Assembly (NCBI GenBank): GCA_022821275.1 | Contig: JAJEDY010000072.1 | Span: 1 to 58,963, forward strand | Length of the DNA stretch: 58,963 nucleotides | Direction of reading: 5' to 3' | Source: Candidatus Latescibacterota bacterium | Lineage (GTDB): Bacteria > Latescibacterota > UBA2968 | Shown here: positions 8,430 to 58,963 of the stretch, one piece after another | Layout: each line of letters opens with the position of its first letter | Numbering within the stretch: position 1 is the first letter of the stretch | Notes under the pieces: generated by a model | The model's database searches: none | The model's input: only the letters and a program-made list of their open reading frames with translations | What the model was told of the DNA's origin: nothing | Translations under genes and position numbers: made by a program

Positions 8430-9746
8430 ATGGGACAGCATATGGCTAATATGTACGATATTACAAAAGAACACGCGATTGAGCGGGGCATACTCGTCGG
8501 GCTTGCGTTGCCCGGTGTCTCTCTCGACGAAGCGCAAGATACGCTTGACGAACTCGGGCTTTTGGCGGATACAGCGGGTGTCGATGTTGCTGTGCAGGTG
8601 CTTCAGGAACGCCAGCGCAGAGATCCCGCGTATCTGATTGGTCGCGGCAAGGCAGAAGATCTCGTCGAACAGGTCGCAGAATCCCATGCACAGGTCGTTA
8701 TTTTTGACGAGGACCTTTCGCCAGCACAAACCCGCAATCTCGAAAATCTGATTGAGGTTAAGATCATCGATCGCAGCCGACTTATTCTGGATATTTTTGC
8801 CAGTCGCGCCAAGACCCGAGAAGCACAAACTCAGGTCGAGTTGGCTCAACTTATCTACATGTTGCCCAGGTTGACACGTCAATGGACCCATCTTTCGCGG
8901 CAGGCTGGCGGTACTGGAGGCTCTGGCGGTGTGGGTACGCGCGGTCCGGGTGAAACGCAGCTTGAGGTAGATCGGCGCGCGACCAATCGCCGCATTACGA
9001 TTCTCAAACAAGCACTGGGGCGCATTGCCAGACAACGCGCGATTGCCCGCAAACAACGCACCGATATTTTTCGCGCAGCACTTGTCGGTTATACCAATGC
9101 CGGCAAATCTACCCTTATGCGTGCCCTTTCTGGCGCCGATGTGTTGATTGAGGATCGGCTTTTTGCTACGCTCGATTCCACCACGCGGCGCATCTCCCTC
9201 GGCTATAACCGCGATATTCTTTTGTCCGATACCGTTGGTTTTATTAAAAAGCTGCCCCACCATCTGATCGCTTCTTTTCACAGTACCCTCGAAGAGGCTA
9301 TCGAAGCCGATCTTTTGCTTCACGTGGTTGACGTCAGTCATCCGGCTTGTGAAGAACATATCGCCACGGTGATTGAGGTGCTTGGAGAACTCGATGTGGC
9401 GGACAGACCGACTATGATGGTGTTTAACAAAAATGATCTGTTAGACGATCAGGCTCGACGCGCATATCTAAAAGCGACATATCCCGACGCGGTCTGGCTT
9501 TCTGCTGAGACGGGTGATGGACTCGAAGACCTGCGGTGGGCGATCTACAACCACCTTGAGGGCGACCGTTTGACGCTCATGGTTCAGATTCCCCAACGCG
9601 AGGGCAAACTCCTGTCAGAACTATACCGAATTGGCGAAGTTTTGCACACGGACTACAAGGGCAATGATGTTTTAATGGAGGTTAAACTCAGCCAACACAA
9701 TGCACAGCGTCTTTTGCCCGATGGTCGTTATCAAAACCTGTGCTGA
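8430..9746 (+). CDS. hflX: GTPase HflX (ribosome rescue/splitting factor)
   Basis: A 438-residue protein with full HflX architecture: an N-terminal glycine-rich domain with YLIGRGKAEDL, a coiled-coil linker with GTRGPGETQLE, then the G domain with G1 GYTNAGKST (about residues 220-228), G3 DTVGFI and G4 NKND, and a C-terminal domain. HflX splits stalled or idle 70S ribosomes, notably in heat stress. The start follows the HIT gene stop directly; ATG 8442 is an alternative. It converges with bactofilin across a bidirectional terminator. Confidence 0.97.
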   Translation: MGQHMANMYDITKEHAIERGILVGLALPGVSLDEAQDTLDELGLLADTAGVDVAVQVLQERQRRDPAYLIGRGKAEDLVEQVAESHAQVVIFDEDLSPAQTRNLENLIEVKIIDRSRLILDIFASRAKTREAQTQVELAQLIYMLPRLTRQWTHLSRQAGGTGGSGGVGTRGPGETQLEVDRRATNRRITILKQALGRIARQRAIARKQRTDIFRAALVGYTNAGKSTLMRALSGADVLIEDRLFATLDSTTRRISLGYNRDILLSDTVGFIKKLPHHLIASFHSTLEEAIEADLLLHVVDVSHPACEEHIATVIEVLGELDVADRPTMMVFNKNDLLDDQARRAYLKATYPDAVWLSAETGDGLEDLRWAIYNHLEGDRLTLMVQIPQREGKLLSELYRIGEVLHTDYKGNDVLMEVKLSQHNAQRLLPDGRYQNLC

Positions 9747-44618: not shown

Positions 44619-44708
44619 AATCTACCGATAGCCTTATATTAAGAACTTACAGGGGTTTAGAAAAAGTTTCGATTTTGGGTACGAATTTTGCTTTTGTGAG
44701 AGTTGATC

Positions 44709-45890
44709 ATGCGAGAAGTGTATTTAGATAATAATGCGACGACAAAGCCTTTGCCCGAGGTGCGCGAGGCCATGATGCGTGTGATGGGTGAGGATTTTGG
44801 CAATCCATCGAGCGCACATTCGGCTGGTGACCGGGTGCGCGAGGCTATGGTTGTAGCGCGTGAAGCCGTTGCACAGTTGGTCGGGGCTGAGGCGGATCAG
44901 ATTGTGTTTATGGGGAGTGGGACTGAGGCGAATAATACGGTTTTTAATTCTGTTGTTCAACGTGCCCCAATGGGAAAACGGGTTCGCATTGTGACGACGA
45001 CTGTAGAACATTCGTCAATTGTGAAGATGTGTGATTATCTCGGTGGAAAAGGCGTTGAGATTGTATCTGTTCCGGTGGATCGCTACGGGCAGTTGGTTTG
45101 GGAAGCTCTGGATGAGGCAGTTACGCCAGATACCGACTTGGTTTCTGTGCAGTGGGTGAATAATGAAACAGGCGCGATTTTGCCCGTCGAGCGGATTGCC
45201 CGACTCTGTCAATCCCGAAGGGTGTTGTTTCACACGGATGCGGCGCAGGCTGTTGGTAAATTGCCCGTTTCTGTAACAGAATTGCCCATTGATTTTTTGG
45301 CTTTTACTGCACACAAATTTCACGGGCCACAGGGGATTGGCGCACTTTATGTGAGGTCGTCCAAAGAGTTGTTGCCGTTGCTTTGGGGCGGATCGCAGGA
45401 AGGTGGATTGCGACCAGGGACAGAGAACCTGCCGGGCATTATAGGCATGGGGACTGCGGCTCAGTTGCGGTTGGATCGGTTGAGGGATGTGCAGGGGCTT
45501 ATGGCTTCGCTTCGGGATCGTTTTGAGCAGTCGGTCATTGCTCAAATATCCGATGTTGAGATTAACGGTGATCCCGATATGCGGGTTTGTAATACGACAA
45601 ATTTGCTGTTTCGAGATGTGGATGGTCAGGCGCTTGTGGCGCGGTTGGACCAGGAAGGAGTAAGGTGTTCTCAGAGTTCGGCATGTACCAATCAGCGGCC
45701 CGAATCTTCGTATGTGTTGCAGGCTATGGGTTTGTCTGAGTCCGAGGCTTACGCGAGTATTCGATTTAGTTTTTCGGAGTTTAATACGGTTGAAGATGTT
45801 GATGATGCGGTTGCACATCTGGCGCAGTTGTGTGAACAATTGCGGAGGTTTAGTCGGCGACGATTGTCGCTTTTAGCGGAGGTGGGATGA
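44709..45890 (+). CDS. sspA: Cysteine desulfurase of a phosphorothioation module (SspA/DndA-like)
   Basis: A 393-residue NifS/IscS-type PLP enzyme. It has the N-terminal YLDNNATTKPLPEVREAM, PLP-binding Lys in AFTAHKFHGPQGIG (near residue 201), and the catalytic Cys loop RCSQSSACTNQRPESS (Cys near residue 325). It takes sulfur from cysteine as a persulfide. Its gene overlaps a DUF4007 gene by 4 bp and is followed by a P-loop ATPase and a DndC-like protein, so its likely role is to supply sulfur for DNA backbone modification rather than general Fe-S assembly. Confidence 0.88.
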   Translation: MREVYLDNNATTKPLPEVREAMMRVMGEDFGNPSSAHSAGDRVREAMVVAREAVAQLVGAEADQIVFMGSGTEANNTVFNSVVQRAPMGKRVRIVTTTVEHSSIVKMCDYLGGKGVEIVSVPVDRYGQLVWEALDEAVTPDTDLVSVQWVNNETGAILPVERIARLCQSRRVLFHTDAAQAVGKLPVSVTELPIDFLAFTAHKFHGPQGIGALYVRSSKELLPLLWGGSQEGGLRPGTENLPGIIGMGTAAQLRLDRLRDVQGLMASLRDRFEQSVIAQISDVEINGDPDMRVCNTTNLLFRDVDGQALVARLDQEGVRCSQSSACTNQRPESSYVLQAMGLSESEAYASIRFSFSEFNTVEDVDDAVAHLAQLCEQLRRFSRRRLSLLAEVG

Positions 45891-46789
45891 TGAAGTTTAG
45901 TGGGCACGAAACTTTTGCAATTCGAGAGGGGTGGCTTCACAAAGGACTCAAGCTGCTCATTGAGGCCCCGGACAAATTGGTGCATGAATTTTCTGCCGAT
46001 TGGCTCGGCGTTGGAAAAAATATGTCCCATTCTATACGTCACTGGCTGGTGGTAACGGGATTGGCGGAGCGCGAAGGCCGTCAAGCTCCGTTGAAAGAAA
46101 CCGAGCTTGGCAGGCTTATTTATGATCACGATGAGTATTTTGTTGATATTGGGACATGGTGGGCTTTGCACGTTAATCTGGTTGCCCCCCAAACGCAGGT
46201 ATATACTTGGAAATGGTTCTTCAATACTTTTACTCACTCCCGATTTGAAAGGTCTCTGTGCATAAATCGTCTAATGCGCGATGTAGAAGACTCACAATCT
46301 CGATTCCCCAGTCAAAATACCATTCAGAGAGATGTTGCTTGCCTGTTGCAGAGCTATGCCAGAGTTATTCCAACAGAAAACAAAGACCCAGAAGAAGCGC
46401 TTGAGTGTCCATTCGTTGAATTGGGTTTATTGAGCTATTTTCGCACATCAAAATATTATCAGGTGCATCAAAGGGAGAAGGCGATTCCCACTCATTTATT
46501 GGGCTATGCTCTTTCCATGGCATTTGAGGAAGTTAGGACAGGACAAGATACATTCGATATATCCGTGGGAGAAGCAGCAACACGCCCGGGCGGTCCAGGC
46601 AAGGCATTTGTATTAACGAGTGAATCCCTATTATCGCTTGCTCTTCAGGCGGAAGAAACGGATTCAAATAAGGACATTCAGGTGGTCGGTCTCGCAGGAG
46701 ACAGAAGAATACGCATGCGGCGAATGCAACCCGTTAATTGGCTGAGAAATCACTATCAGATCCAATGGAGGGATCAGCATGCAGCATAA
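45887..46789 (+). CDS. sspB: DUF4007 protein (SspB-like)
   Basis: A 300-residue protein that begins KFSGHETFAIREGWLHKGLK and contains LGVGKNMSHSIRHWL (about residues 43-57), hallmarks of DUF4007. Proteins of this family are the SspB component of SspABCD, reported to nick DNA for single-strand phosphorothioation. The start codon overlaps the stop of the desulfurase, and its end overlaps the ATPase start by 11 bp, so translation is coupled. No classic nuclease motif is evident by eye. Confidence 0.82.
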   Translation: MMKFSGHETFAIREGWLHKGLKLLIEAPDKLVHEFSADWLGVGKNMSHSIRHWLVVTGLAEREGRQAPLKETELGRLIYDHDEYFVDIGTWWALHVNLVAPQTQVYTWKWFFNTFTHSRFERSLCINRLMRDVEDSQSRFPSQNTIQRDVACLLQSYARVIPTENKDPEEALECPFVELGLLSYFRTSKYYQVHQREKAIPTHLLGYALSMAFEEVRTGQDTFDISVGEAATRPGGPGKAFVLTSESLLSLALQAEETDSNKDIQVVGLAGDRRIRMRRMQPVNWLRNHYQIQWRDQHAA

Positions 46790-49700
46790 GAAAATAGTCG
46801 AGTTCGATGCGGAAGTATTTCTTCGTTCTATTAACATACAATACGATGCAGAATATCCGAATCGGATTGCACACTACCAGCCTACGGCTAAGAGTGTCCC
46901 TCTTATAAAATCCCTGCTCGGTTCTGAACAAGATAGGGCATTTTTTGTTGTTGCGCCCTATGGTACAGGGAAATCAATTACAGCGACCTATTTATTGCAT
47001 TTGGTTGAGAATTGCCCCGATGCCGATGAAACACTATCTGCTATTGAAGACAAGCTGGAAGTAGTTAGTCCAGATTTGAGCAAGTTTTCCAAAGAACGTC
47101 GCAACGAGAAAGACAAAGGGCTTATGCTGGCATTGCAGGGCTATTGTGAAAATTTGGGCGAGAGCCTGAAGGATGCCGCGCTCAAAGGGATGGGGCGCTT
47201 AAAACTCGGTCGTCAAGCGCGTACAATTGAATCTATGCCGTGTGAAACGATTGACCAGGCAATAGAATTGCTCGGCGCGGTTCGGGATAAGGCGCGTTCA
47301 GCGGGCTGTGATCGGGTTGTGATTTTGTGGGATGAGTTTGGACGCCATATTGAGTCTTTGATTGCCGAGGGGCGTTCTGCTGCTCTGAGTGAAATTCAAT
47401 TGTTAGCTGAGTGTGTGAGTCGGTCTATAGTTATTCCCGTAACGCTCGGCTTGTTGTTGCATCAGGAGTTGTTGCAATATGCGAGCAATTCACCAGCTTC
47501 GGTTCGTGCAGAATGGAGAAAAATTGAAGGTCGCTTCCAGACTATTCAGTATATCGACGATAGCAAGGAAATATACCGTTTGCTATCAGAAGTGGTTTCT
47601 GAACAGAATGGCTCTAATGTCTTGCCTGATGAACAATCAAAGTTGTCTGCGACGGTGTGTAAGAAACTTGGATTATTTTCTGACTTTACTGTATCGGAAC
47701 TCCAGTCGCTTTTGCGCGGTGCATATCCCTTGGAACCCACTACTCTGTACTTGCTACCACGCATTTCAGGTCGGGTTGCACAGAACGAAAGGACGCTGTT
47801 CAGCTTTCTCAATTTCATGGACTTTCAAAATCATGTTAGACCGGATCATCTCTACGAATACTTTTCACCGGAAATGCGTACAGATACGGCTGTAGGTGGA
47901 ACATATAAACAATGGCTTGAAACACAGAATGCCCTTTCAAAGCTCGACAATGATAACGGTCTGGCGGCAACAGCACTGAGAACCGCAAGTCTGTTGGGTT
48001 TTGGCGTAAATGGTGAGCGGTCCCGAACGTCCCGCGATTTGCTGTTATTTGCCCTGCGCGGTTATGCAGGTGCTGGGGGAGTCAATAATGGGGCACAACA
48101 GGAAGAAGAGGTTGTTGATCAACTCATAGACCAGAAACTCCTTTTACATAGAAAACACAGTGATGAGGTTTCTGTGTGGCATGGGACGGATGCCGACCTT
48201 CGAGGTAGGCTCGAAGAAGAGAAATCACGACAGCGCAGGACATTCGATTTCCTTACTTTTTTGACGGATGAAGCCAATCCCCCTGTCTGGCGACCGGTCA
48301 GATATAACAGTGATTTCCATATCAGGCGTTTCCTACGGGGAGAGTATTGCAGTCTGGAAAAACTGAGCGAATATCTTGATGTGGAGAATCCCAATGCTGA
48401 CACGGATTTAGTCAGTAATATGCCCGTTGGATGTGATGGTATTTGTGTCTATGTGATTGTCGAGACGACGGAAGAACTTCAGGAAGCAGAGCGAGCGGTT
48501 GCCAATTATCTGCATGAAGAACGAGTCATTTGTGCGGTGCCTAAGGCTCCCATCCCTCTATTTGAGGCAGCTTTGGAAGTGTGGTGTTTAATTCAGATGC
48601 AGGAGGATGATAAGCTGGTGGAATCGGATCCGATGGTGTTGTCTGAAATTCAACAGATGACAGATGATGCCCGTAGCTATCTTCAAAAGCTCCTTGATCG
48701 GCTGATCCTGCCGGGTAGTAAAGGGCCGCGATGGTTTTACAAAGGGCGTGAGTTACCAGTCAAAAATGCTTATGACTTGAGGAACGAATTGTCCGAGATC
48801 ATGCAGACAATCTTTCACTATACCCCTAAGATCAATAACGAGATGATTGTTCGGCACAAGCCTACTCCTACTGTGGTCAATTCTCGTAAGAAGCTCTTAC
48901 TCGGCATTCTTGAGCGTTCAGGTCAGGAAAATTTTGGGATTAAAGGTAATTCTCCCGATGCATCAATGTTCCGAACCATTCTCTGGCGCACAGGTCTTTA
49001 TACCAATAAAGATAAAGTTTGGAAATACGCTTTACCCGATGAAATTAAAGACTCTGGACTTCAAAAGGTATGGAGCAAGATTCAGCAGTTTTTCACAACT
49101 CCATCGGAAAAACTCAAGGATATCCAGGAATTTTTTGATGAACTGATGAAACCACCTTTCGGGGTCCGCGCTGGATTGCTTCCCATTCTCTTTGCCGCAG
49201 GTCTTAAAGCATTTCCCAGTGCGTATTCGCTACGCTATAAGGGGAGTTACGTATCTGATATTCTACCTTCGGATATTGAGCAGTTATGTCGTGAACCGAA
49301 ACAGTATGAATTTATTGTCTTAGACCTTGATCAGACAAAATACGATTATCTCAACGCTGTTCTCGAACTCTTTGATACTCAAGCGAGGTCAGTAACTGGA
49401 AATGATCTCATTCGAGCCTGTTATGACGCGCTTGAAAACTGGAAGACAGATCTACCCACAGGCGCACTTTCGACAAAACATTTAACGGATCAAACCCGAT
49501 GCTTCCAAATAGCACTTCGTCAGCAGTCTGATCCGGAGCAACTGCTATTTGAGGGTATTCCAAAGGCATTAGGCTATCCAAACCATAAACACCACTTGTT
49601 GTTGGAATCATTTGAAAAATGCAAAAGTAAACTATCTAAGGTCGTTGACTGTTACCGGACAGAAGCGATTTCCTCTTTGTGCAGTGCCTTATCTATGAAC

Positions 49701-50168
49701 TGGAAATTTGAAAACGGATATGTACAGAAAATAGCACGCCGCTGGGCATTGTGTTTTCCCAATGAACTATCCAACGCGCTAAATGACAGCGTGTCAAAAG
49801 GTCTCCTATCTCGTATGCGTATGCAATATCCGTCTGATGCCAAACTTCTTGATTCACTTTCGGGCTTATTGCTGCAGAAGACGATTAACCGGTGGGATGA
49901 TAGCTGTATCGCCAATTTTGATCGGGAAATTCATAACGTAGTACGACGCATTGAGGAAACTGCTTTGTCTTCTGAGTTTCAAGTAAACGGAACAGCCAAA
50001 GATAGATTGGCTGACTTGGTTCAAACACGCATGGATGGATTGTATAGACGTTTGACAGATATCGTTGGCCCGGAAAAAGCGCGTACCTTGTTTGCACATA
50101 TTCTTGAAGACAACACGGGAGAAGGTTTACATGGCGACCATACAAGAGGCGTTGAACAATCAGTCTGA
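46779..50168 (+). CDS. sspC: Large P-loop ATPase of the phosphorothioation module (SspC-like)
   Basis: An 1129-residue protein with Walker A APYGTGKS (near residue 62) and Walker B VVILWDEFG (near residue 183), i.e. an AAA/STAND-like ATPase followed by about 900 residues without motifs I can name. The N-terminal HYQPTAKSVPLIKSLLG precedes the ATPase core. In SspABCD modules an ATPase couples modification to DNA. It overlaps DUF4007 upstream and the DndC-like gene downstream (38 bp). Assignment as SspC rests on context. Confidence 0.78.
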   Translation: MQHKKIVEFDAEVFLRSINIQYDAEYPNRIAHYQPTAKSVPLIKSLLGSEQDRAFFVVAPYGTGKSITATYLLHLVENCPDADETLSAIEDKLEVVSPDLSKFSKERRNEKDKGLMLALQGYCENLGESLKDAALKGMGRLKLGRQARTIESMPCETIDQAIELLGAVRDKARSAGCDRVVILWDEFGRHIESLIAEGRSAALSEIQLLAECVSRSIVIPVTLGLLLHQELLQYASNSPASVRAEWRKIEGRFQTIQYIDDSKEIYRLLSEVVSEQNGSNVLPDEQSKLSATVCKKLGLFSDFTVSELQSLLRGAYPLEPTTLYLLPRISGRVAQNERTLFSFLNFMDFQNHVRPDHLYEYFSPEMRTDTAVGGTYKQWLETQNALSKLDNDNGLAATALRTASLLGFGVNGERSRTSRDLLLFALRGYAGAGGVNNGAQQEEEVVDQLIDQKLLLHRKHSDEVSVWHGTDADLRGRLEEEKSRQRRTFDFLTFLTDEANPPVWRPVRYNSDFHIRRFLRGEYCSLEKLSEYLDVENPNADTDLVSNMPVGCDGICVYVIVETTEELQEAERAVANYLHEERVICAVPKAPIPLFEAALEVWCLIQMQEDDKLVESDPMVLSEIQQMTDDARSYLQKLLDRLILPGSKGPRWFYKGRELPVKNAYDLRNELSEIMQTIFHYTPKINNEMIVRHKPTPTVVNSRKKLLLGILERSGQENFGIKGNSPDASMFRTILWRTGLYTNKDKVWKYALPDEIKDSGLQKVWSKIQQFFTTPSEKLKDIQEFFDELMKPPFGVRAGLLPILFAAGLKAFPSAYSLRYKGSYVSDILPSDIEQLCREPKQYEFIVLDLDQTKYDYLNAVLELFDTQARSVTGNDLIRACYDALENWKTDLPTGALSTKHLTDQTRCFQIALRQQSDPEQLLFEGIPKALGYPNHKHHLLLESFEKCKSKLSKVVDCYRTEAISSLCSALSMNWKFENGYVQKIARRWALCFPNELSNALNDSVSKGLLSRMRMQYPSDAKLLDSLSGLLLQKTINRWDDSCIANFDREIHNVVRRIEETALSSEFQVNGTAKDRLADLVQTRMDGLYRRLTDIVGPEKARTLFAHILEDNTGEGLHGDHTRGVEQSV

Positions 50169-50937
50169 TGATATCCAGCATATCGTCAGTGTTTCAGGGG
50201 GTAAGGACTCCGCAGCCCTTGCCATTTATATGCGGCAAAATTATCCCCAAATTCCTGCGGAGTATGTTTTCTGTGATACCGGATGTGAATTAGATGAGAC
50301 GTACGAGTATTTGGAGTGCTTAGAGGCTCTGCTTGGCGTCGATATTCACCGTCTAAACGCGCTCGACAGCTTGGGGGTAGAGAAGAAGCCCGGGCGCAAT
50401 CCGTTTGATATGTATTTGAATGAGATATACAGCGGTTATTTGCCCAGCCCGAGATCGCGGTGGTGTACGCGCGTGCTAAAAATTGAACCTTTTGAGGATT
50501 ATGTTGGCGATAGCCGGGCGTATAGCTATATCGGCATTCGCGACGATGAAGACCGGGATGGGTACATCTCAAAAAAGCCACCCTCGATTTCTCAGCAGCC
50601 CAATATTATTCCTATTTATCCGTTTAAGGACGATGGGCTTGGTTTATCGGATATTGTGCATATTTTGGAAGAATCGGGTTTAGGTCTGCCAGAGTATTAC
50701 AAGTGGCGGTCGCGGTCCGGATGCTATTTTTGTTTTTACCAGCAGATTGGGGAGTGGCAGAGGTTAAAACAAGAACATCCCGACCTATTCGAGAAGGCGA
50801 AGGAATACGAGCAAGAAAAGAATGGAAAGAAATTTACCTGGGTAGATGGCAAAACCCTGGATGATATTGTAAATCAACCCCTCAGAGACTTGCCTGTGAT
50901 TGATGAGGCTGAGGGTTGTGCGATTTGTCATTTGTAG
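50131..50937 (+). CDS. sspD: ATP pyrophosphatase, DndC/PAPS-reductase family (SspD-like)
   Basis: A 268-residue protein with the PP-loop VSGGKDSAAL (about residues 22-31). Cys residues lie in CDTGCELDETYEYLE, RWCTR, and the C-terminal CYFCF and CAICHL, which could hold an Fe-S cluster as in DndC. It would activate DNA for sulfur insertion using ATP. ATG 50131 follows GGGAGAAGG, inside the end of the ATPase gene. With the three preceding genes it completes an sspABCD set. Confidence 0.85.
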   Translation: MATIQEALNNQSDDIQHIVSVSGGKDSAALAIYMRQNYPQIPAEYVFCDTGCELDETYEYLECLEALLGVDIHRLNALDSLGVEKKPGRNPFDMYLNEIYSGYLPSPRSRWCTRVLKIEPFEDYVGDSRAYSYIGIRDDEDRDGYISKKPPSISQQPNIIPIYPFKDDGLGLSDIVHILEESGLGLPEYYKWRSRSGCYFCFYQQIGEWQRLKQEHPDLFEKAKEYEQEKNGKKFTWVDGKTLDDIVNQPLRDLPVIDEAEGCAICHL

Positions 50938-50987
50938 TCAGTCTGCCTATGTACGCTCACAGGCAGACTGAAAGGATCAAACAATAA

Positions 50988-52772
50988 ATGCAGGATGAAC
51001 TTCGGCCAGAATACGACTTGCGAACTTTGCAAGTAAGAAAAGTTGGCCCGGAGCGAAAGCTCTCTGGTAGATCAGTTGTCCAGTCAGCACCGGATGTCGC
51101 CGAGGTATTTCAATCAGGTTGGGCTCAGTTATTTGCGTTATACAAAGAAGATACAGGAAATGGGGAGACGATGTTCAGCGGATTGGGTTTGACGGTAAGC
51201 CAATTCTTTGGGGCACTCTCAGACCAAGACCTTAGGCGATTCTTGGATCCTGGTGTCTTGGCGGTACTGGATACAATTTTCGGCGGACGAATAGCTGGCG
51301 ACGACCTAAAGCGTGTCGCTCGAATGCTCGTTGATGTTGATATGTTGCTCGGAGAAGAGGAGGGACGAAGGCTTGTCCTTAGTCTCGTTCCGGATGAGAA
51401 GCTCGCCGAGATGAAAGTCCGTGTCGGTCGCAGTATCCACCCCACTGACGCAAGCAATTGGACCGAGGTAGAAGTAGGACGGATACGCGATTTCTTTGGT
51501 CTAGCCGAAGAGCGGATCGTACCGCCTACACTACCACCAACGGATACGATCAGTCCTGAGTACGGTCTATTCGATCATCAGAGAAATGTTGTTCGAAAGC
51601 TGACGCCACTGTTGGCTCAAGATGAACGCCGTGTAGTTCTTCATCTACCTACCGGGGTAGGTAAGACTCGGACAGCCATGCATGTGGTGGCCGATTGGCT
51701 ATGCACATACGAACCGTCGGTTGTGGTTTGGCTGGCATCAGGGCAGGAATTACTGGAACAAGCGGTGCTGGCATTCAAAGAGGCGTGGTCTCACTTGGGA
51801 ACAAGGCCCCTACAAATTGGAACTATGTGGGGCGATCAAATGCCTGATCTCGATAGCTTCTCTGACGGATTTCTCGCTGTCGGGCTTGCAAAGGGCTGGG
51901 CTGTAATCTCACGTACTGACCCGGATTGGGCATTGCGACTCTCTCCACGGGTTCGGCTTGTGGTTTTCGATGAAGCCCACCAGAGCATCGCCCGAACCTA
52001 CAGGCAGATCGCCGAAGAACTTACCCTCGATTTCCGATGTGCATTATTAGGACTCACTGCCACACCAGGACGAACGTGGGCCGATATTGACGAGGATGGT
52101 AAACTGGCCGAATTCTTTTCTGGCAATAAGGTCTCTCTTGATATTCCGGGTGATAATCCTATTGAATATCTTATCGAAAATGGATTTCTCGCCCGCCCGA
52201 TTTTTCGCACTCTTCTTTCTAAACCTGGCGTCAATATCGGCGATGACGAATTAGCGCAGATCTCAGATGCATTGGAGATACCCGAAGAGATTGTGGCTTC
52301 CTTGTCAATGAGTGAGCAATACGTGACCGCAGTGCTTGAAGGAATTATGGAACTTCTTAGTACAGGCCATCAGCGCATTCTCGTTTTTGCTGCGACGGTT
52401 GATCACGCTCGAGTACTGACCGCTATACTCACTGCTCGCGATGTCCGTAGCTATGCGATAACAGGAGCAACACCGATACGTGTGAGGCAACAATCCATTA
52501 GGGCTTTCAAGTCGGATGACGGAGAACCAATCATTCTCGTCAACTTTGGCGTATTGACGACGGGGTTCGACGCGCCGAAGGCGAGTGCTGTAGTCATAGC
52601 TCGTCCGACACAGTCTTTGGTATTATACAGCCAGATGGTCGGACGTGCGATTCGTGGGCCGAAGGCGGGGGGCACTGAAACTTGTGAAATTTTGACGGTC
52701 GTTGATCCAAACCTGCCAGGGTTTGGCGATGTCACAGAAGCATTTCTGAATTGGGAGGATGTATGGCAATGA
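50988..52772 (+). CDS. SF2 DNA helicase of the putative restriction module
   Basis: A 594-residue DEAH-type helicase. An N-terminal domain of about 195 residues has no motif I know. The core has Walker A LPTGVGKT (near residue 222), DEAH in VVFDEAHQ (near residue 327), LTATPGR, then in the second RecA domain GFDAPKASAVVIARPTQS and QMVGRAIRGP (motif VI). Such helicases move along dsDNA in restriction systems. It begins 50 bp after the DndC-like gene and overlaps the GHKL gene, and is thus probably the SspF-like or equivalent effector gene. Confidence 0.82.
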   Translation: MQDELRPEYDLRTLQVRKVGPERKLSGRSVVQSAPDVAEVFQSGWAQLFALYKEDTGNGETMFSGLGLTVSQFFGALSDQDLRRFLDPGVLAVLDTIFGGRIAGDDLKRVARMLVDVDMLLGEEEGRRLVLSLVPDEKLAEMKVRVGRSIHPTDASNWTEVEVGRIRDFFGLAEERIVPPTLPPTDTISPEYGLFDHQRNVVRKLTPLLAQDERRVVLHLPTGVGKTRTAMHVVADWLCTYEPSVVVWLASGQELLEQAVLAFKEAWSHLGTRPLQIGTMWGDQMPDLDSFSDGFLAVGLAKGWAVISRTDPDWALRLSPRVRLVVFDEAHQSIARTYRQIAEELTLDFRCALLGLTATPGRTWADIDEDGKLAEFFSGNKVSLDIPGDNPIEYLIENGFLARPIFRTLLSKPGVNIGDDELAQISDALEIPEEIVASLSMSEQYVTAVLEGIMELLSTGHQRILVFAATVDHARVLTAILTARDVRSYAITGATPIRVRQQSIRAFKSDDGEPIILVNFGVLTTGFDAPKASAVVIARPTQSLVLYSQMVGRAIRGPKAGGTETCEILTVVDPNLPGFGDVTEAFLNWEDVWQ

Positions 52773-54700
52773 ATGGCATGGGCGAGCAACTGACGTTTTC
52801 GATCTTGGATACCCCAAGGGCCGTCGAGGCACTGCGTGATAGCGGCTACATGTCTACTACGCATGCGCTTGCGGAACTCATCGACAACTCGATCGAGAGC
52901 GGAGCTACGTCAATAGAAGTCTTTGGAGTAACGCAACAAGATGATATCACAAAAAGATTTACACTTAAAGAGCTAGCCGTACTTGACAATGGTGGGGGAA
53001 TGGATGCAGAGACTCTGAGAAGGAGTCTCCGTTACGGCGATGGAACGCGACGGGAACGACAGGGGATTGGACGCTTTGGCGTAGGGCTTCCCAACTCGTC
53101 AATGTCGCAGGCAAAGCAAGTGGATGTTTGGTCGTGGCAATCAGGCGTTACTAATGCACTGCATACTCGACTTTCTATCGTTGATGTGAATAGTGGTCTA
53201 AACGAGATCCCGGAACCGAAGTTGAAATCCATTCCAAACGTATACCGTAATAAAAGCCGCATGGAGTTTGGTGACTCTGGAACTCTCGTAAGGTGGAGTG
53301 ATCTTGATCGAGTCGAATGGAAACGAGTATCGACGACTTTCCGGCATACGGAAGCCCTTCTGGGCAGGCTTTACCGACGTTTTCTCGCCAAGCCATCGGA
53401 GCGGCTACATTCCGACGACCCAAGAGATGACATTGGTCCCCGACGCACTATTCAATGCATACCCATCCAGCAGGTAGGAAACTCATTTAAAGTTGAAGAG
53501 GATGACATTGTAGAAGTGAGGCCGAACGATCCTCTTTACCTGATGAGTGGAACTTCATGTCTGGAAGACTTCGGTCCTGGTCCTATGTTTACGGAATTGG
53601 AAGGGAGTCCTTTTGTGGTGCCTGTGAAGTATAATGATCAGGAATATCCAGTACGTGTCCGGGCGGCTTATGCCCGTGCTCATGTTCGCGACCCTTCTAA
53701 CCCTGAAGCTACTTGGCCTGAAGCGTACGCTGGATGGGATTCCGGTAGTACTCCGTGGGGAAAGCATGCTGGTCAGAATATGGGTGTATCTCTGATGCGA
53801 GCGCATCGTGAAGTTATGCTCGACGAATCTTGGGTAAGTGGCGACGACCCAAGAGAACGATGGTGGACAGTGGAAGTAGATTTCCCGACTGATCTAGATG
53901 AAGTATTCGGTGTCACCAATAATAAACAAGGTACGATGACCTTCCAGCGGCTTGCCCGATTCGACTGGAAACGAGAGGCCTTACCTGGTGAAGAATCGTT
54001 CGGTGATGTTCGCCGACGAATGGAAGAAGAAGGTGACCCTCGCGTCTCTCTTATAGATCTTCGCAGACAGATCGAAAACGCACGCAGGTTGATGCGACCT
54101 CGTGTCAGAGAAGCACGGCAGAGCCGAGGCGCACGCCATGTGCAAAGTGAAGACCAGAAAGCTGACGCAAAGGTCACTGCCGCTGTCAAGCATAGGATAC
54201 AGGAAGGATACAAAGGAAAATCTGACCTTGCCGGTGAATCGGCAACTGAGAAGGAGCAAAGGGAAAAACAAGTCGAATCCTTGGTTGTAAAACATCGTAT
54301 AGACGAACAAGATGCCCTTGAAAAAATAGATGAGACGATTAAAGCGGGAAACCTAGTGCGTTGGATCCAATCGTCGCAATCTAGTCCAGCCTTCTTTGAT
54401 GTCGAAGCACTGCCCAACCTACTTCAAGTTGCGCTCAACACGGACCATCCTGTCTATTCACATCTCTATGAGATTATGCACCCTGATGTCGAAGAATTGA
54501 CAGAGGATGAGGTTCGGGAACGACTCGCGAAAGCTGCCGCGGCTTTCCGCATTCTCATCTATTCGTGGGCACGCTATGAGGATGAGCAGACAGGCCGTGA
54601 TCAGCGTCAGGTACGCAATGCACGTGTGGAATGGGGAAAGTACGCGGAAGAGTTTTTCGACGAAGACGATGGATCAATTGATCCTACAGATCTGGTATAG
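52763..54700 (+). CDS. GHKL (Hsp90/MutL/MORC-like) ATPase of the putative restriction module
   Basis: A 645-residue protein. The GHKL fold is shown by the N-box ALAELIDNSIESGA (near residue 38), G1 LDNGGGMD (near 75) and G2 GIGRFGVGL (near 100). The remainder has charged, probably helical stretches (EKEQREKQVESLVVKHRID). ATP-driven dimer closure as in MutL/MORC is expected. ATG 52763 overlaps the helicase end; ATG 52769 is an alternative. GGGAGG at 52753-52758 serves either. The helicase-GHKL-PLD order is the interesting part. Confidence 0.82.
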   Translation: MAMNGMGEQLTFSILDTPRAVEALRDSGYMSTTHALAELIDNSIESGATSIEVFGVTQQDDITKRFTLKELAVLDNGGGMDAETLRRSLRYGDGTRRERQGIGRFGVGLPNSSMSQAKQVDVWSWQSGVTNALHTRLSIVDVNSGLNEIPEPKLKSIPNVYRNKSRMEFGDSGTLVRWSDLDRVEWKRVSTTFRHTEALLGRLYRRFLAKPSERLHSDDPRDDIGPRRTIQCIPIQQVGNSFKVEEDDIVEVRPNDPLYLMSGTSCLEDFGPGPMFTELEGSPFVVPVKYNDQEYPVRVRAAYARAHVRDPSNPEATWPEAYAGWDSGSTPWGKHAGQNMGVSLMRAHREVMLDESWVSGDDPRERWWTVEVDFPTDLDEVFGVTNNKQGTMTFQRLARFDWKREALPGEESFGDVRRRMEEEGDPRVSLIDLRRQIENARRLMRPRVREARQSRGARHVQSEDQKADAKVTAAVKHRIQEGYKGKSDLAGESATEKEQREKQVESLVVKHRIDEQDALEKIDETIKAGNLVRWIQSSQSSPAFFDVEALPNLLQVALNTDHPVYSHLYEIMHPDVEELTEDEVRERLAKAAAAFRILIYSWARYEDEQTGRDQRQVRNARVEWGKYAEEFFDEDDGSIDPTDLV

Positions 54701-54705
54701 CAATC

Positions 54706-55617
54706 ATGACTGCGGATAGTGGTACGCAGGGCAGTCGTATTCGCGCCCTTTTCGAGAATACAGAAGACGATGTTTCAATTATCGCACCGTTCATCAAGAT
54801 AGACGCATTGAGATCATTGCTTAAAGTCATTCCTTCGGAAACACATCTGAGGTGTGTCACCCGATGGCTTCCCGAAGAAGTCGCTATAGGGGTATCCGAT
54901 CCGGAGATATTAGACTTACTGGAGGAGCGTGGCAACTTCATTCTTACCTTGGTTGACAGGCTGCACGCCAAGCTCTACATCGCCGGTGACCGATGCCTCG
55001 TTGGTTCATCTAATGTGACTCTTGCAGGACTTGGTGAAGGAGGAGATTCCAATAATATTGAGATTCTTGTAGATACGACTATCGATGCTCCAGGAGTTGC
55101 GGAGACACTCGAAGAAATCTCTAACACAGAACGTCCAGCGACGAGGGCCATAGCACAAATTACACGTCGTTTAGCCGACAGTCTCTCCGCCTCAGCACTA
55201 TCAACAGCCACTATTGAAATATCGTGGTTTCCAATCAGTCGGCGACCTCAAGACGCGTATCTATTTTACACACAACCACCGAGTGGATATACAAAAGCTG
55301 CTGACCGCATCCTGTTAGATGACTTGGTCAAAGCTAATCTTCAGCCGGGCCTTGAGGAAGGTGAATTCCGATCCGAGATTCGTTCCTTGCTTCAGACTAT
55401 ACCTATAGCGGAGAGTTTTCTCAACACAACTGAAGACACTACACTCACTTTCGCCGACACGCACTCTTATTTTAAGGAAATCGCCGGAGACCAGTTCTCT
55501 GCCAATGAACTATGGCTCGCATTTGTCGAATGGATGGCGCACTTCTTTAACGATCAAGTTATGAGACAAGAGATAACAGAGATTGCACTCCGGCGTGCCC
55601 AGATACTGATTCAGTGA
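54706..55617 (+). CDS. Phospholipase D-family nuclease with one HKD motif
   Basis: A 303-residue protein with one HKD motif, HAKLYIAGDRCLVGSSNVT (His near residue 86), after a strand-rich N-terminal half (SIIAPFIK). Single-HKD enzymes such as Nuc and BfiI act as dimers and cut DNA without metal. The C-terminal half is helical and unassigned. It starts 5 bp after the GHKL gene. It is the only recognisable nuclease in the helicase-GHKL-PLD group and is therefore the likely DNA-cutting part. Confidence 0.82.
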   Translation: MTADSGTQGSRIRALFENTEDDVSIIAPFIKIDALRSLLKVIPSETHLRCVTRWLPEEVAIGVSDPEILDLLEERGNFILTLVDRLHAKLYIAGDRCLVGSSNVTLAGLGEGGDSNNIEILVDTTIDAPGVAETLEEISNTERPATRAIAQITRRLADSLSASALSTATIEISWFPISRRPQDAYLFYTQPPSGYTKAADRILLDDLVKANLQPGLEEGEFRSEIRSLLQTIPIAESFLNTTEDTTLTFADTHSYFKEIAGDQFSANELWLAFVEWMAHFFNDQVMRQEITEIALRRAQILIQ

Positions 55618-55698
55618 TACAATCCCTACGCCGTTGAGTCCCGTTTGGTATTCGAATGTAATGTTACGATATGGCAGATTTTTTTTGAATAAAGTCTC

Positions 55699-55732
55699 TT
55701 GACTTTATGTATGTTTAGTGTTACATTACACT
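55699..55732 (+). promoter_or_regulatory. Promoter with overlapping operator for the XRE-ImmA operon
   Basis: TTGACT (55699-55704), 17-bp spacer, TACATT (55722-55727). The palindrome AGTGT-N6-ACACT (55717-55732) covers the -10. A further related core, GTAACATTACA on the minus strand (55657-55667), lies upstream. A self-repressed promoter is the simplest reading. Confidence 0.65.
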
Positions 55733-55748
55733 GCAATTGGAGGAAAAT

Positions 55749-56105
55749 ATGGCTACATTTGGAGAGACCATCAAACAGTGGCGACTTAATTTACGTCTTG
55801 GTTTACGAGAGTCCTCTAAAGAGATTGGAATTTCAGCAACCTATCTGAGCCGACTCGAAAATAATAAGGAGAATCCACCACAAGCTGATAAACTTGTACA
55901 GATCGCAAAAGTTTACGATAAAACGGAAGATGAAATCTTCAGTCTTGCGGATCGGGTGCCCCCCGATATTGAAGAAACCTATAAGAAAAATGATGTTTAC
56001 AAAGAAAAGTTGCCAGAATTGATGCGGACAATTGCACAACAAAACCTTACGGCCCCTGAATGGGATCAATACATAGAAGATACAAAGAACCGGCATAATC
56101 GGTAA
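55749..56105 (+). CDS. XRE-family repressor (CapH-like)
   Basis: A 118-residue protein with a Cro/C1 helix-turn-helix (LGLRESSKEIGISATYLSRL, about residues 16-35) and a C-terminal helical tail (about residues 75-118). In its layout with a following ImmA/IrrE peptidase it matches CapH of CapH-CapP pairs, where DNA damage makes the peptidase cut the repressor. GGAGG precedes ATG 55749. It likely represses its own promoter and, from the shared site, the ubiquitin-like operon. Confidence 0.82.
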   Translation: MATFGETIKQWRLNLRLGLRESSKEIGISATYLSRLENNKENPPQADKLVQIAKVYDKTEDEIFSLADRVPPDIEETYKKNDVYKEKLPELMRTIAQQNLTAPEWDQYIEDTKNRHNR

Positions 56106-56123
56106 TGGTGTAGGAGGTTACTT

Positions 56124-56768
56124 TTGGTTGTCGTTCCTTACTTAACATACGATCATATGGAGGCAGTGGCTCAAAAACTGCTGTTTGAATACGAACAAGA
56201 GAGGGGGCAATTGACTCCACCAATCCTTATTGATGACATTATCGAAAACCACCTAAAATTATCTCTTGAAATTGAAAATCTTAGAGATGAACTGGGATGT
56301 TCAGATATTTTGGGTGGAATTTACTTCTCGGAACGTCGAATCGTGATCGATAGTTCCCTCGCAGAAGAGGATGGACGATATAACTTCACAGCAGCCCATG
56401 AGGTAGCACATTGGGAACTACATCGAGAGCTTTTTATGTCCAACTCCAATCAAACCGATATTGTCTGCCGAGATTCGCAAAAAAGACAAAGAGAAGAATA
56501 CCAGGCCGATTTCACTGCTGCGTGTATATTGATGCCTCGTAATCTTCTGGCTCAAGCTGTACGTGAATATTACGGAAAAGAAGTCTATCCGTTTAAACGG
56601 GGTACGAAGTTTCGCCAATACGACGACTGCGTTGACCATGTAGCTAGAAATTTCAATAAAACTTTCGGCGTGTCTATACAGGCGATGATGATTCGGTTGA
56701 AGCGGACACAACTGGTGCGCGATACCACAGCGGATCTGATAGACTCGTCAAGTCTGTATGCTAATTAA
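56124..56768 (+). CDS. ImmA/IrrE-type metallopeptidase (CapP-like)
   Basis: A 214-residue protein with the zinc motif HEVAH (about residues 92-96) and the downstream acidic ligand region EEYQADFTAACILMPRNLL. ImmA/IrrE family peptidases cleave XRE-type repressors; CapP does so on sensing ssDNA. Translation begins at TTG 56124, six bases after a strong TAGGAGG; the next ATG would be inside the fold. It lies 18 bp behind the repressor gene. Confidence 0.85.
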   Translation: MVVVPYLTYDHMEAVAQKLLFEYEQERGQLTPPILIDDIIENHLKLSLEIENLRDELGCSDILGGIYFSERRIVIDSSLAEEDGRYNFTAAHEVAHWELHRELFMSNSNQTDIVCRDSQKRQREEYQADFTAACILMPRNLLAQAVREYYGKEVYPFKRGTKFRQYDDCVDHVARNFNKTFGVSIQAMMIRLKRTQLVRDTTADLIDSSSLYAN

Positions 56769-57138
56769 GGGTTAAACGGGTAAGAAGTATGTTATGATTA
56801 TTTGACATTTGTCTTTGTTTTTTTATTTTAATTGTTTAGTGTTTTGTTACATTAAACGATTAAGTGGTAGCTAATCATTCAAGGAGGTGTACCGTGTAAG
56901 ATTGCTCATAAAAAATTGTTGGTCCCAGCGGTGGGGTTACTAGCTGAGAACAAACTGTTATTAAAGGTGAACGGCCCTCGCCCAAATCCAATCAGGGCTA
57001 CGTAATCACAGATCGAACTAAGAACAATAGTGGACGTGGTTAATGCGATCCTGTTTTGATAGCCATGAGGCTAAAATTCGATTTCTAATTTTTCAAAATA
57101 CCTATGTGTTTAACACTATATCCCATAAGGAGGATATT
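56769..57138 (+). other. 370-bp intergenic region ahead of the ubiquitin-like operon
   Basis: This stretch contains the candidate promoter and operator-like core (56802-56856), a strong AAGGAGG (56880-56886) followed by GTG and at once TAA, and a further 240 bp with no gene. From 56899 a frame without a start codon runs to a TAA at about 57003, and a second frame ends near 57041; together they look like a decayed or frameshifted small gene, or an untranslated leader. A second AAGGAGG directly precedes the ubiquitin-like gene. Confidence 0.5.
56802..56856 (+). promoter_or_regulatory. Candidate promoter and operator for the ubiquitin-like operon
   Basis: TTGACA (56802-56807), 16-bp spacer, TATTTT (56824-56829). 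Just downstream TGTTTAGT (56833-56840) and GTTACATTAAA (56846-56856) repeat elements of the XRE promoter (TGTTTAGT at 55712-55719, GTTACATTACA at 55720-55730). Confidence 0.55.
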
Positions 57139-57474
57139 ATGGCAAACGTAAGTGATGTATCTGAGGCGATCCGGGAAGAAATCCTCGATGAAATCGCCGA
57201 TCTCGAAGAATATGCAGCACGCGGAGAACGCCCACCGCAGTGTCGTGGTTACCGTATTCGCGTCAATCGTGAGCGATTCGTAATGTATGACTCGAAACCG
57301 ACGCGTGAAATGATTCTGGAAACAGCGGGTTTAATCCCTGTCAAGGAATGGACACTCCGACTCGTAGTACGGAGTTGCAAGCCCGAGTTGATCAAGCAGG
57401 ACGAACAGGTCGATCTTACACGCCCCGGGGTCGAAAAATTCAAGGCCCTACCGCGTGACCAGACGGAGGGTTGA
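57139..57474 (+). CDS. Ubiquitin-like protein (multi-ubiquitin domain family)
   Basis: A 111-residue protein with one beta-grasp domain at about residues 36-105 (GYRIRVNRERFVMYD, TREMILETAGLIPVKEWTLRL, VDLTRPGVEKFKALP), the pattern of the bacterial multi-ubiquitin family, after an acidic helical N-terminus (EAIREEILDEIADLEEYAA). It ends in Glu-Gly, so its C-terminal glycine is exposed without processing. It would be activated by the E1 domain encoded downstream and attached to targets. ATG 57139 has AAGGAGG before it. Confidence 0.82.
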   Translation: MANVSDVSEAIREEILDEIADLEEYAARGERPPQCRGYRIRVNRERFVMYDSKPTREMILETAGLIPVKEWTLRLVVRSCKPELIKQDEQVDLTRPGVEKFKALPRDQTEG

Positions 57475-57475
57475 A

Positions 57476-57877
57476 ATGTCGCGGCATCATTTTGAACTTC
57501 TGGCAGAAGATCACCAATTTTTGGATGATTACGGTTGCCCATGGGAGACCATCTCTGATGGCTCCCAATGGGTGCTGCTGCATAATTTCAGTACCCAGCA
57601 CTCTGGGTATAACCATCAACGTGTCACCGTAGCAATCCGTCTGGAAACCGGATATCCGAAGACGCCTCTGGACATGGTGTATTTCTACCCGGCACTTGCG
57701 CGCAAGGATGGAAAGCAGATTGGAGCTATCCAAGCGACACAGCCGATCAACGGCAAGGCCTTTCAAAGGTGGTCTCGGCACCGCACGGGCACGAACCCCT
57801 GGATCGTCGGTCAAGACAACCTCGGGACACACATACTCTTGGTCGAGGACTGGCTACGTCGGGAATTTGAAAAGTGA
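57476..57877 (+). CDS. E2-like protein (Prok-E2 family E type)
   Basis: A 133-residue protein with an UBC-like core: VTVAIRLETGYPKTPLDMVYFYPAL, then QRWSRHR, NPW and a C-terminal LVEDWLRREFEK helix. It fits the bacterial E2/UBC family encoded with multi-ubiquitin and E1 genes. The only Cys is near residue 21, before the fold's core; no Cys occurs where E2 enzymes keep the active one. ATG 57476 follows the ubiquitin-like gene stop by 1 bp, with a GGAGGG site inside it. Confidence 0.72.
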   Translation: MSRHHFELLAEDHQFLDDYGCPWETISDGSQWVLLHNFSTQHSGYNHQRVTVAIRLETGYPKTPLDMVYFYPALARKDGKQIGAIQATQPINGKAFQRWSRHRTGTNPWIVGQDNLGTHILLVEDWLRREFEK

Positions 57878-57886
57878 GATAGACAA

Positions 57887-58843
57887 ATGGAAGTGACACT
57901 TACTTTAACCGAAGATCAACACGAAGAGCTTAAAGCGCATCTCTTTCCAGGTGATGGATATGAGGCATCGGCGATCATTCTTTGTGGGAGATGTACCGGA
58001 GATCGGCGACATCGTCTGGTTGCGCGAGAAGTGCATCCTATCCCGTATAAACAATGCTCTGAGCGTACACCTTTACGTGTAACTTGGCCGACTGATGTCA
58101 TTACTCCTCTACTTGATCGCGCTGAAAAGCACGGGTGGACAGTGATAAAGAGTCATAGCCATCCTAACGGTAGAGCACGGTTCTCCAAAACTGATGATGA
58201 AGGTGATCGCAAACTAATACCCGCGGTTCGCGACTGGTTCGATGATGATTTCTTTCACGGTAGCGTTGTCATGCTCCCCAATGGAGAGATATTTGGCCGC
58301 TATCTTGATGGTAAGGGTGATTTTGTACCTCTGGCACACATCAACGTAGTTGGGGACGATCTCCTATTTTGGTATGCCGATCCACACGGCGACAATATCC
58401 CAGATTTTGTGGCGTCTCACACCCAAGCATTTGGTGAAGGAACCTTTGAACGCATTCGCCGTCTGTCGATTGCAGTTGTTGGCTGTTCCGGGACCGGCAG
58501 TCCGGTGATTGAGCAACTTGCTCGACTCGGTGTTGGGGAACTGGTGCTCGTTGATGAAGACATTATTGAAGAACGGAATATCAACCGTATCTTGAACGCA
58601 ACAATGAATGACGTGCAAGACAGTCGGTACAAAGTCGGCGTTCTCACCGAGGCGATCAATCGCATCGGCATCGGAACCCGCGTTATTCCCTTGGCTACGA
58701 ATCTTTGGACACCGCAGGCAGTACGGGCCGTTGCACAATGCGATCTCGTTTTTGGGTGTGTAGATACAATTGACGGGCGTTTTCTGCTCAACACACTCGC
58801 TACCTACTACATACTTCCCTATATAATGCGAATAAAGAGTTGA
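57887..58843 (+). pseudogene. JAMM peptidase-E1 (ThiF) fusion, truncated by an insertion sequence
   Basis: The visible protein has an N-terminal JAMM domain with HSHPNGRARFSKTD, an exact H-x-H-x7-S-x2-D (His near residue 89). An E1/ThiF adenylation domain follows: AVVGCSGTGSPV (near residue 200), LVDEDIIEERNINR and GCVDTIDGR. It then runs to LLNTLATYYILPYI, the usual start of the last ThiF core part, and stops after MRIKS read from foreign DNA. The remaining E1 half, with its catalytic Cys, is missing. An intact protein would both activate the ubiquitin-like protein and remove it. Confidence 0.85.
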
Positions 58844-58847
58844 AAAG

Positions 58848-58917
58848 ATCGCGTTCTTGCCAGATGATTGAGTAGTCAAAGCAATCATCAACCCTTAAAA
58901 AGGAGCAAGAACGCGAT
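58848..58917 (+). promoter_or_regulatory. Nested hairpins sequestering the transposase start
   Basis: A 13-bp perfect inverted repeat, ATCGCGTTCTTGC (58848-58860) and GCAAGAACGCGAT (58905-58917), encloses an 8-bp one, GATGATTG (58863-58870) and CAATCATC (58882-58889). The outer right arm covers the end of the AAAGGAG ribosome site and the first two bases of the ATG. A transcript entering from outside would fold and hide the start. Confidence 0.7.
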
Positions 58918-58963
58918 GGATTGGCAAGATAGACTCATCGGTTTGTATCTGTATATATGCCAG
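58916..58963 (+). CDS. Transposase, N-terminal 16 residues only
   Basis: ATG 58916, after AAAAAGGAG, opens a frame that runs off the right edge (MDWQDRLIGLYLYICQ). So short a piece does not allow a confident IS family assignment; the N-terminus is reminiscent of DDE transposases of the IS982 type, which is only an impression. Confidence 0.6.
   Translation, partial: MDWQDRLIGLYLYICQ

What the first reader, a model, noticed from the sequence alone, without database searches (positions are those of the whole stretch)
55657..56856. CapH/CapP-like repressor-protease pair may control the ubiquitin-like operon
Seen: an XRE repressor and an ImmA/IrrE peptidase lie between two defence clusters. The 11-bp core GTTACATTACA overlaps the -10 of their promoter; one-mismatch forms occur upstream (55657-55667, minus strand) and behind the promoter of the ubiquitin-like operon (56846-56856). 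Known: CapP-type peptidases cut CapH repressors on DNA damage in CBASS and other islands. Inference: the pair makes the ubiquitin-like operon inducible by DNA damage, which could itself be caused by the neighbouring restriction system.
Basis: partly seen in the sequence, partly recalled or inferred. Interest (0 to 1): 0.75.

Follow-up and report, generated by a model that had tools for sequence, protein, structure and literature searches.

The report
Phage-type switch fronting a ubiquitin-like operon
A repressor gene and a protease gene that look like a phage's on/off switch sit, with a matching DNA control site, in front of a bacterial ubiquitin-like operon and probably control it; this general kind of control is already published, and in this genome the operon is currently broken by a mobile element.

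Summary
XRE (55749-56105) and M78/ImmA peptidase (56124-56768) lie between an Ssp/restriction cluster and a Multi_ubiq-E2-JAB/ThiF ("Bub"-type) operon. The shared element is better read as an 18-bp palindrome (6-N6-6): TAGTGT-N6-ACACTG over the XRE -10 (55716-55733) and TAGTGT-N6-ACATTA behind the operon promoter (56837-56854). A perfect palindrome of the same form covers the -35 (55690-55707). The 55657 site is weak.

Ten homologous phage/plasmid loci carry a matching palindrome before XRE and 42-78 bp after the ImmA stop; the window's lies at +69. XRE-M78 pairs also flank many Bub-type operons (43 of 86 loci here; published: 219 of 544 have CapW or CapH+CapP). So control of the operon by the pair is likely, but the concept is known.

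Three corrections. The pair resembles phage ImmR/ImmA cassettes more than CapH/CapP: the peptidase lacks the C-terminal domain that PprI needs to sense ssDNA, so DNA-damage induction is unproven. Similarity to same-genus operons begins only inside a decayed leader gene behind the operator, so pair and output promoter look swapped in. The operon's E1 gene is split by an insertion sequence, so the pathway is probably dead here.

The parts
44703..50937 (+). SspA/DndA-like cysteine desulfurase, SspB (DUF4007), SspC, SspD/PAPS-reductase-like: phosphorothioate-type modification module
   Evidence: Pfam Aminotran_5 6.6e-71; PADLOC SspB 1.6e-111, SspC 2.3e-162; SspD by homology with the SspA-D cluster of L130 and reading of the ORF
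50988..55617 (+). Helicase, GHKL/HATPase (MzaB-like) and PLD-like (DrmC-like) genes: probable restriction module
   Evidence: Pfam ResIII, HATPase_c_3; PADLOC MzaB 5e-15, DrmC 9e-8; the same three genes at 65-87% identity behind different Ssp genes in L130
55657..55667 (-).
   Evidence: 12/16 to the box; not among the 6-N6-6 palindromes scoring 5/6 or more
55690..55707 (.). Palindrome TAAAGT-ctcttg-ACTTTA over the -35 of the XRE promoter; candidate operator O1a
   Evidence: 6/6 palindrome
55699..55727 (+). Predicted promoter of XRE-ImmA (TTGACT-17-TACATT)
55716..55733 (.).
   Evidence: matching palindromes in 10 homologous cassettes
55749..56105 (+). XRE repressor, 118 aa (HTH 1-66, flexible linker about 76-88, C-terminal helices)
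   Evidence: end-to-end homologue in L134 (E 3e-13)
56124..56768 (+). ImmA/IrrE (M78) metallopeptidase, 214 aa, HEVAH at residues 92-96; no C-terminal GAF-like domain
56802..56829 (+). Predicted promoter of the ubiquitin-like operon (TTGACA-16-TATTTT)
56837..56854 (.). Palindrome TAGTGT-tttgtt-ACATTA; operator O2, +69 after the ImmA stop
   Evidence: same position range (+42 to +78) in 10 cassettes
56890..57048 (+). Remnant of a YjzC-like leader gene (start lost, stops); similarity to same-genus operons begins here (about 56912)
57139..57474 (+). Multi_ubiq ubiquitin-like protein
   Evidence: PF14452 5e-10
57476..57877 (+). Prok-E2_E conjugating-enzyme-like protein
   Evidence: PF14462 5e-39
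57887..58825 (+). 5' part of the JAB-ThiF (E1) gene; the remainder plus a DUF6527-type gene lies on contig C46
58824..58963 (.). Left end of a multicopy insertion sequence inside the E1 gene (contig end)
   Evidence: 140-bp match at 7 other contig positions; about 6-bp overlap of the two E1 halves on L018 suggests a target duplication

Best explanation
The two genes are a phage-type repressor-protease switch (ImmR/ImmA-like; it works like CapH/CapP). The XRE dimer binds 18-bp palindromes at its own promoter (O1a/O1b) and at an output promoter just behind the protease gene (O2), so it represses itself and the next operon. When the M78 protease is activated it cleaves XRE, and both promoters open. 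In phage relatives the output is the next phage operon (replication genes follow in two of them); here a regulator-plus-output-promoter block has been joined, at a junction inside a decayed leader gene, to a Bub-type ubiquitin-like operon. Shown by sequence: gene families, the two matching palindromes, their conserved layout in ten cassettes, the junction, the IS-split E1. Inferred: binding, cleavage, operon control. Unknown: the activating signal; DNA damage is possible, but not through the PprI-type ssDNA-sensing domain, which is missing.
For: All 10 examined homologous cassettes (phages, prophage plasmid, plasmid) show matching palindromes before XRE and +42 to +78 after the ImmA stop; the strongest score 22-24 of 24 against shuffle maxima of 19-20. 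The window's O2 is at +69 and matches O1b at 10/12 outer positions (17 of 5000 shuffles in that interval). Pair homologues are end-to-end and co-directional. M78 flanks Bub-type operons upstream in 53 of 74 loci versus 1 of 74 downstream. L021, a same-phylum Bub-type operon behind a co-directional pair, has GTTAGC-N7-GCGAAC / GTTAGC-N7-GCTTAC at -19 and +37 (12 of 1000 shuffles). Similarity to same-genus operons starts only behind O2. Models match IrrE/PprI (1e-4) and SinR/DdrO/CapH-type HTH domains.
Against: No binding or cleavage data. The window's own palindromes are less perfect (score 20 of 24) than those of most phage cassettes, and single-locus significance is moderate (0.3-3%, depending on the test). 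Some listed cassettes are close to each other (L143, L146, L147), so ten is an over-count of independent cases. No orthologous locus keeps both pair and operon. The operon is disrupted, so control may no longer matter in this genome.
Confidence: 0.68

Rival explanations
1. Standard CapH/CapP control: the protease senses ssDNA from DNA damage or phage attack, cleaves the repressor and induces the ubiquitin-like operon.
For: Adjacent XRE+M78 pair; PADLOC capP 2.4e-19; CapP (7t5t) is the only peptidase hit in PDB sequences; published association of Bub operons with CapH+CapP or CapW.
Against: Only 118 residues follow HExxH and no GAF-like domain is modelled, whereas PprI without that domain neither binds nor responds to ssDNA (PMC10904395). 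The nearest full-length relatives are phage cassettes. ICE ImmA proteins can still be switched on by DNA damage through RecA (PMC10233336), so damage control is not excluded.
Confidence: 0.17
2. The pair only regulates itself (a stranded phage or mobile-element immunity module); the site in the operon leader is a non-functional leftover of its former output promoter.
For: Decayed leader gene, IS-split E1 and a recent-looking junction; no orthologous locus keeps pair and operon.
Against: Operon coding sequences were under purifying selection (dN/dS 0.11-0.24); the output promoter and O2 remain intact and in the conserved position; L021 shows a similar pair fronting a related operon.
Confidence: 0.12
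3. The repeated motif is chance similarity in AT-rich leaders; the operon is constitutive or read through from XRE-ImmA.
For: Two-mismatch matches to the 11-mer are at background; AT-rich leaders; no terminator found between ImmA and the operon; some tests give only p of about 0.03-0.04.
Against: Both extra sites together in 0 of 3000 shuffles and the conserved two-site layout in ten cassettes.
Confidence: 0.03

Closest known systems
Phage/prophage XRE-ImmA immunity cassettes (e.g. Corynebacterium atypicum phiCATYP2070I L138, Acutalibacteraceae phage NatCom_991 L136, MT835765 L134); ImmR/ImmA of ICEBs1 and TnSmu1
   Same: Gene order and direction; full-length homology (peptidase 25-31% over about 90%, repressor 24-30% over about 95%); matching palindromes before XRE and behind ImmA; in L138 a type I R-M operon lies just upstream
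   Different: Output here is a ubiquitin-like operon instead of the phage's own next operon; half-site sequence differs
CapH/CapP (CBASS- and Bub-associated)
   Same: XRE repressor plus M78 protease beside a defence-type operon, with palindromic promoter sites
   Different: Peptidase lacks the long C-terminal part typical of operon-linked peptidases; pair is co-directional and upstream, whereas most Bub-linked pairs in the survey are divergent
PprI(IrrE)/DdrO of Deinococcus
   Same: Best structural match of the peptidase model (3dti, 1.1e-4); HTH of the repressor resembles DdrO
   Different: No GAF-like domain; the pair controls a local operon rather than a dispersed regulon (one exact site in the genome)
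CapK/CapS (PMC13373217)
   Same: Local regulators, often between an upstream R-M system and a downstream Bub operon
   Different: Kinase/STAS-wHTH chemistry instead of protease/XRE

Membership tests
CapH/CapP | Adjacent XRE repressor and M78 peptidase beside an immune operon | tested here: met
CapH/CapP | HExxH metallopeptidase active site | tested here: met
   HEVAH at residues 92-96
CapH/CapP | C-terminal sensor region as in CapP/PprI that responds to ssDNA | tested here: not met
   118 residues after HExxH against a median of 190; no strands after residue 76 in the model; in PprI the GAF-like domain is required
CapH/CapP | Repressor sites in its own promoter and in the target operon promoter | tested here: inconclusive
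   palindromes present and conserved in layout; binding not testable
CapH/CapP | Induction by DNA damage through repressor cleavage | not testable with these tools
   needs reporter and cleavage assays
Phage/ICE ImmR-ImmA-type cassette | Short M78 peptidase and XRE with end-to-end homology to phage cassettes, same order and strand | tested here: met
Phage/ICE ImmR-ImmA-type cassette | Matching palindrome before XRE and within about 40-80 bp behind ImmA | tested here: met
   O1b and O2 (+69); ten cassettes at +42 to +78
Phage/ICE ImmR-ImmA-type cassette | Controls phage or ICE genes | tested here: not met
   downstream genes are Multi_ubiq/E2/JAB-ThiF; no other mobile-element gene was seen in the examined neighbourhood except the IS
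Bub (bacterial ubiquitination-like) operon | Multi_ubiq Ubl, E2, JAB-ThiF E1, DUF6527 | tested here: met
   same gene set behind CapK/CapS-like genes in an E. roggenkampii plasmid, the species used for Bub in PMC13373217
Bub (bacterial ubiquitination-like) operon | Intact E1 | tested here: not met
   split by an IS between C39 and C46

The most novel reading that the evidence does not exclude
Phage lysogeny-type switches (XRE, short ImmA and their output promoter) act as portable regulator blocks that are swapped in front of bacterial defence-type operons, so that a Bub operon answers to a phage's induction signal rather than to a built-in ssDNA sensor; L021 would be an independent case and phiCATYP2070I (R-M, then XRE-ImmA, then phage operon) the source-like arrangement.
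Probability: 0.35. Interest if true: 0.62.

Novelty: new variant of a known kind. Interest (0 to 1): 0.45.

Why it matters
Local protease-repressor control of ubiquitin-like operons is a recent topic. This locus suggests that the control unit can be a phage immunity cassette together with its output operator, without the ssDNA-sensing domain, and gives an exact 18-bp operator and a position rule (about 40-80 bp behind the protease gene) that can be tested and used to predict targets of such cassettes. It also cautions that in this genome the controlled operon is disrupted.

Tried and rejected
(1) Finding orthologues that keep both pair and operon: species-wide scan, phylum, plasmid and viral scans with the peptidase gave none; a profile scan could not be built and one from L139 found nothing. 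(2) The 11-bp core in 8 relative loci: absent; replaced by a palindrome-geometry test. (3) A dispersed regulon: rejected, one exact site and no 1-2-mismatch sites in the genome. (4) The pair as part of the Ssp/restriction unit: it does not follow the PLD gene in three relatives. (5) Stops reported by tblastn in the second half of E1 suggested decay; they come from the IS-derived part, and both halves are open. (6) Ungapped comparison of the two leaders alone was only marginal (78 of 2000 shuffles), so it was not used as the main evidence.

Full report
Observation. The XRE gene (55749-56105) and the M78/ImmA gene (56124-56768) are real and lie between an SspA-D/helicase/HATPase/PLD cluster and a Multi_ubiq, Prok-E2_E, JAB-ThiF operon. 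The exact core and its two one-mismatch forms are at the stated positions. The 11-mer alone is weak: eight matches with up to two mismatches against eleven expected. A 16-bp box around the first site finds, in 59 kb, only the three reported places and one other at 12/16 or better; shuffled leaders reproduce both extra sites in 0 of 3000 trials. No other site with two or fewer mismatches exists in the 5.66-Mb assembly.

Corrected register. The shared unit is an 18-bp palindrome of two 6-bp half-sites with a 6-bp spacer: TAGTGT-tacatt-ACACTG (55716-55733, over the -10) and TAGTGT-tttgtt-ACATTA (56837-56854, behind the predicted operon promoter), plus TAAAGT-ctcttg-ACTTTA (55690-55707, over the -35). 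The 55657 site is not a good palindrome of this form.

Why the downstream site is probably real. The nearest full-length relatives of the pair are co-directional XRE-ImmA cassettes in phages and plasmids. In ten of these loci, the same kind of palindrome occurs before XRE and again 42-78 bp after the ImmA stop, for example GTTAGC-N6-GCTAAC twice in L136, GTAAGC-N6-GCTTAC twice in L144, GTTCGC-N6-GCGAAC in L134 and L139. Six score 0 of 300 shuffles in the first test (L134, L138, L139, L143, L144, L147); L136 and L146 reach 24/24 once the upstream stretch is widened to 230 bp; L137 and L145 are weaker (8 and 5 of 300). Three of the ten (L143, L146, L147) are close relatives. The window's downstream palindrome lies at +69 and matches the upstream one at 10 of 12 outer positions (34 of 5000 shuffles anywhere in the leader, 17 of 5000 within +40..+80).

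Link to the ubiquitin-like operon. I collected 86 loci with the same E2 family. M78 peptidases lie upstream in 61, XRE genes in 47, both in 43; within 2.2 kb the count is 53 of 74 upstream against 1 of 74 downstream. Divergent loci carry their own palindromes between regulator and operon (GCTTGAyATATCAAGC; GTTTACAAA...TTTGTAAAC). L021, in the same phylum, has a co-directional XRE-M78 pair and two matching palindromes at -19 and +37 (12 of 1000 shuffles). The general association is published: 219 of 544 Bub operons have CapW or CapH+CapP, and CapK/CapS often sit between an R-M system and a Bub operon (PMC13373217). An E. roggenkampii plasmid with CapK/CapS-like genes before a multiubiquitin-E2/ThiF/DUF6527 operon ties that name to this operon type.

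What kind of pair. The peptidase has HEVAH at 92-96, but only 118 residues after it; 54 of 61 operon-linked peptidases have more than 130. Its model (pLDDT 81) has catalytic and helical parts and best matches IrrE/PprI, with no strand after residue 76. [quoted passage not shown] ICE ImmA proteins can nevertheless respond to DNA damage through RecA (PMC10233336), so induction by damage is open. The repressor model has a confident HTH, a low-confidence linker (78-88) and C-terminal helices; its HTH matches SinR, DdrO and CapH.

A swapped-in block and a broken target. Nucleotide similarity to the same-genus operons (L018, 91%) begins at about 56912, inside a YjzC-like leader gene that is intact in L018 and L019 but has lost its start and gained stops here. 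Everything upstream, including O2, is unrelated; L018 instead has a sigma-like gene, a small gene and an M78 gene there. The E1 gene is cut by a multicopy IS: the 5' part ends at the contig end and the remainder is on contig C46, with a 6-bp overlap relative to L018. Ubl, E2 and both E1 parts have dN/dS of 0.11-0.24 against L018, so decay is recent.

Verdict. Control of the operon by the pair is likely by sequence, the mechanism is inferred, the DNA-damage step is unproven, and the concept is known; the phage-cassette affinity and the two-operator layout are what this analysis adds.

Noticed in passing
L018:6757-8660(-), L078, L079, L084, L088, L090, L091, L093, L095, L098, L099, L104, L108, L051 upstream of the Ubl operon: A different regulator set sits divergently before many Bub-type operons: an ECF-sigma-like gene (TIGR02937 5e-10 in L079, 2e-9 in L018), a 110-150-aa protein without a family, and a 260-300-aa M78 peptidase. 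35 of 86 loci have the sigma-like gene, 21 of them with an M78 hit within 5 kb. It suggests sigma release by protease cleavage of an anti-sigma; no paper on it was found.
   Followed up: partly
Bacteroidota loci L075, L077, L078, L081, L082, L095, L108, L115, between the sigma-like gene and Ubl: Inverted pairs of AAGCGTGACA / TGTCACGCTT (or close forms) in the divergent intergenic region, possibly back-to-back sigma-specific promoters.
   Followed up: partly
window 58824-58963 and G000:C46 end (L027): Multicopy IS splits the E1 gene and breaks the assembly; contigs C39 and C46 are probably neighbours.
   Followed up: yes
L018 about 9009-9197; L019; L020 about 9100-9210(-): A YjzC-like (PF14168) leader gene precedes the Ubl gene in this genus; it is decayed in the window and apparently shortened and fused to the Ubl reading frame in L020.
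   Followed up: partly
window 44703-55617 versus L130: Helicase, HATPase and PLD-like genes are 65-87% identical to L130 while SspA-D are only 23-46% identical: modification and restriction modules appear to be exchanged separately.
   Followed up: partly
L018:8690-9000: About three imperfect repeats (...TGGCAAAATTTCCGAACTAACGGGCATATA...) between the sigma-like gene and the Ubl operon; one copy is also left upstream of the operon in L020.
   Followed up: no
window 21695-26872 (-): 1725-aa protein joining a DpdF/PsyrT-like helicase part (8e-113) and a GajB-like UvrD helicase part (4e-49).
   Followed up: no
L138 (phiCATYP2070I): Prophage plasmid in which a type I R-M operon, an XRE-ImmA pair and then phage genes follow one another on one strand, mirroring the window's layout.
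   Followed up: partly
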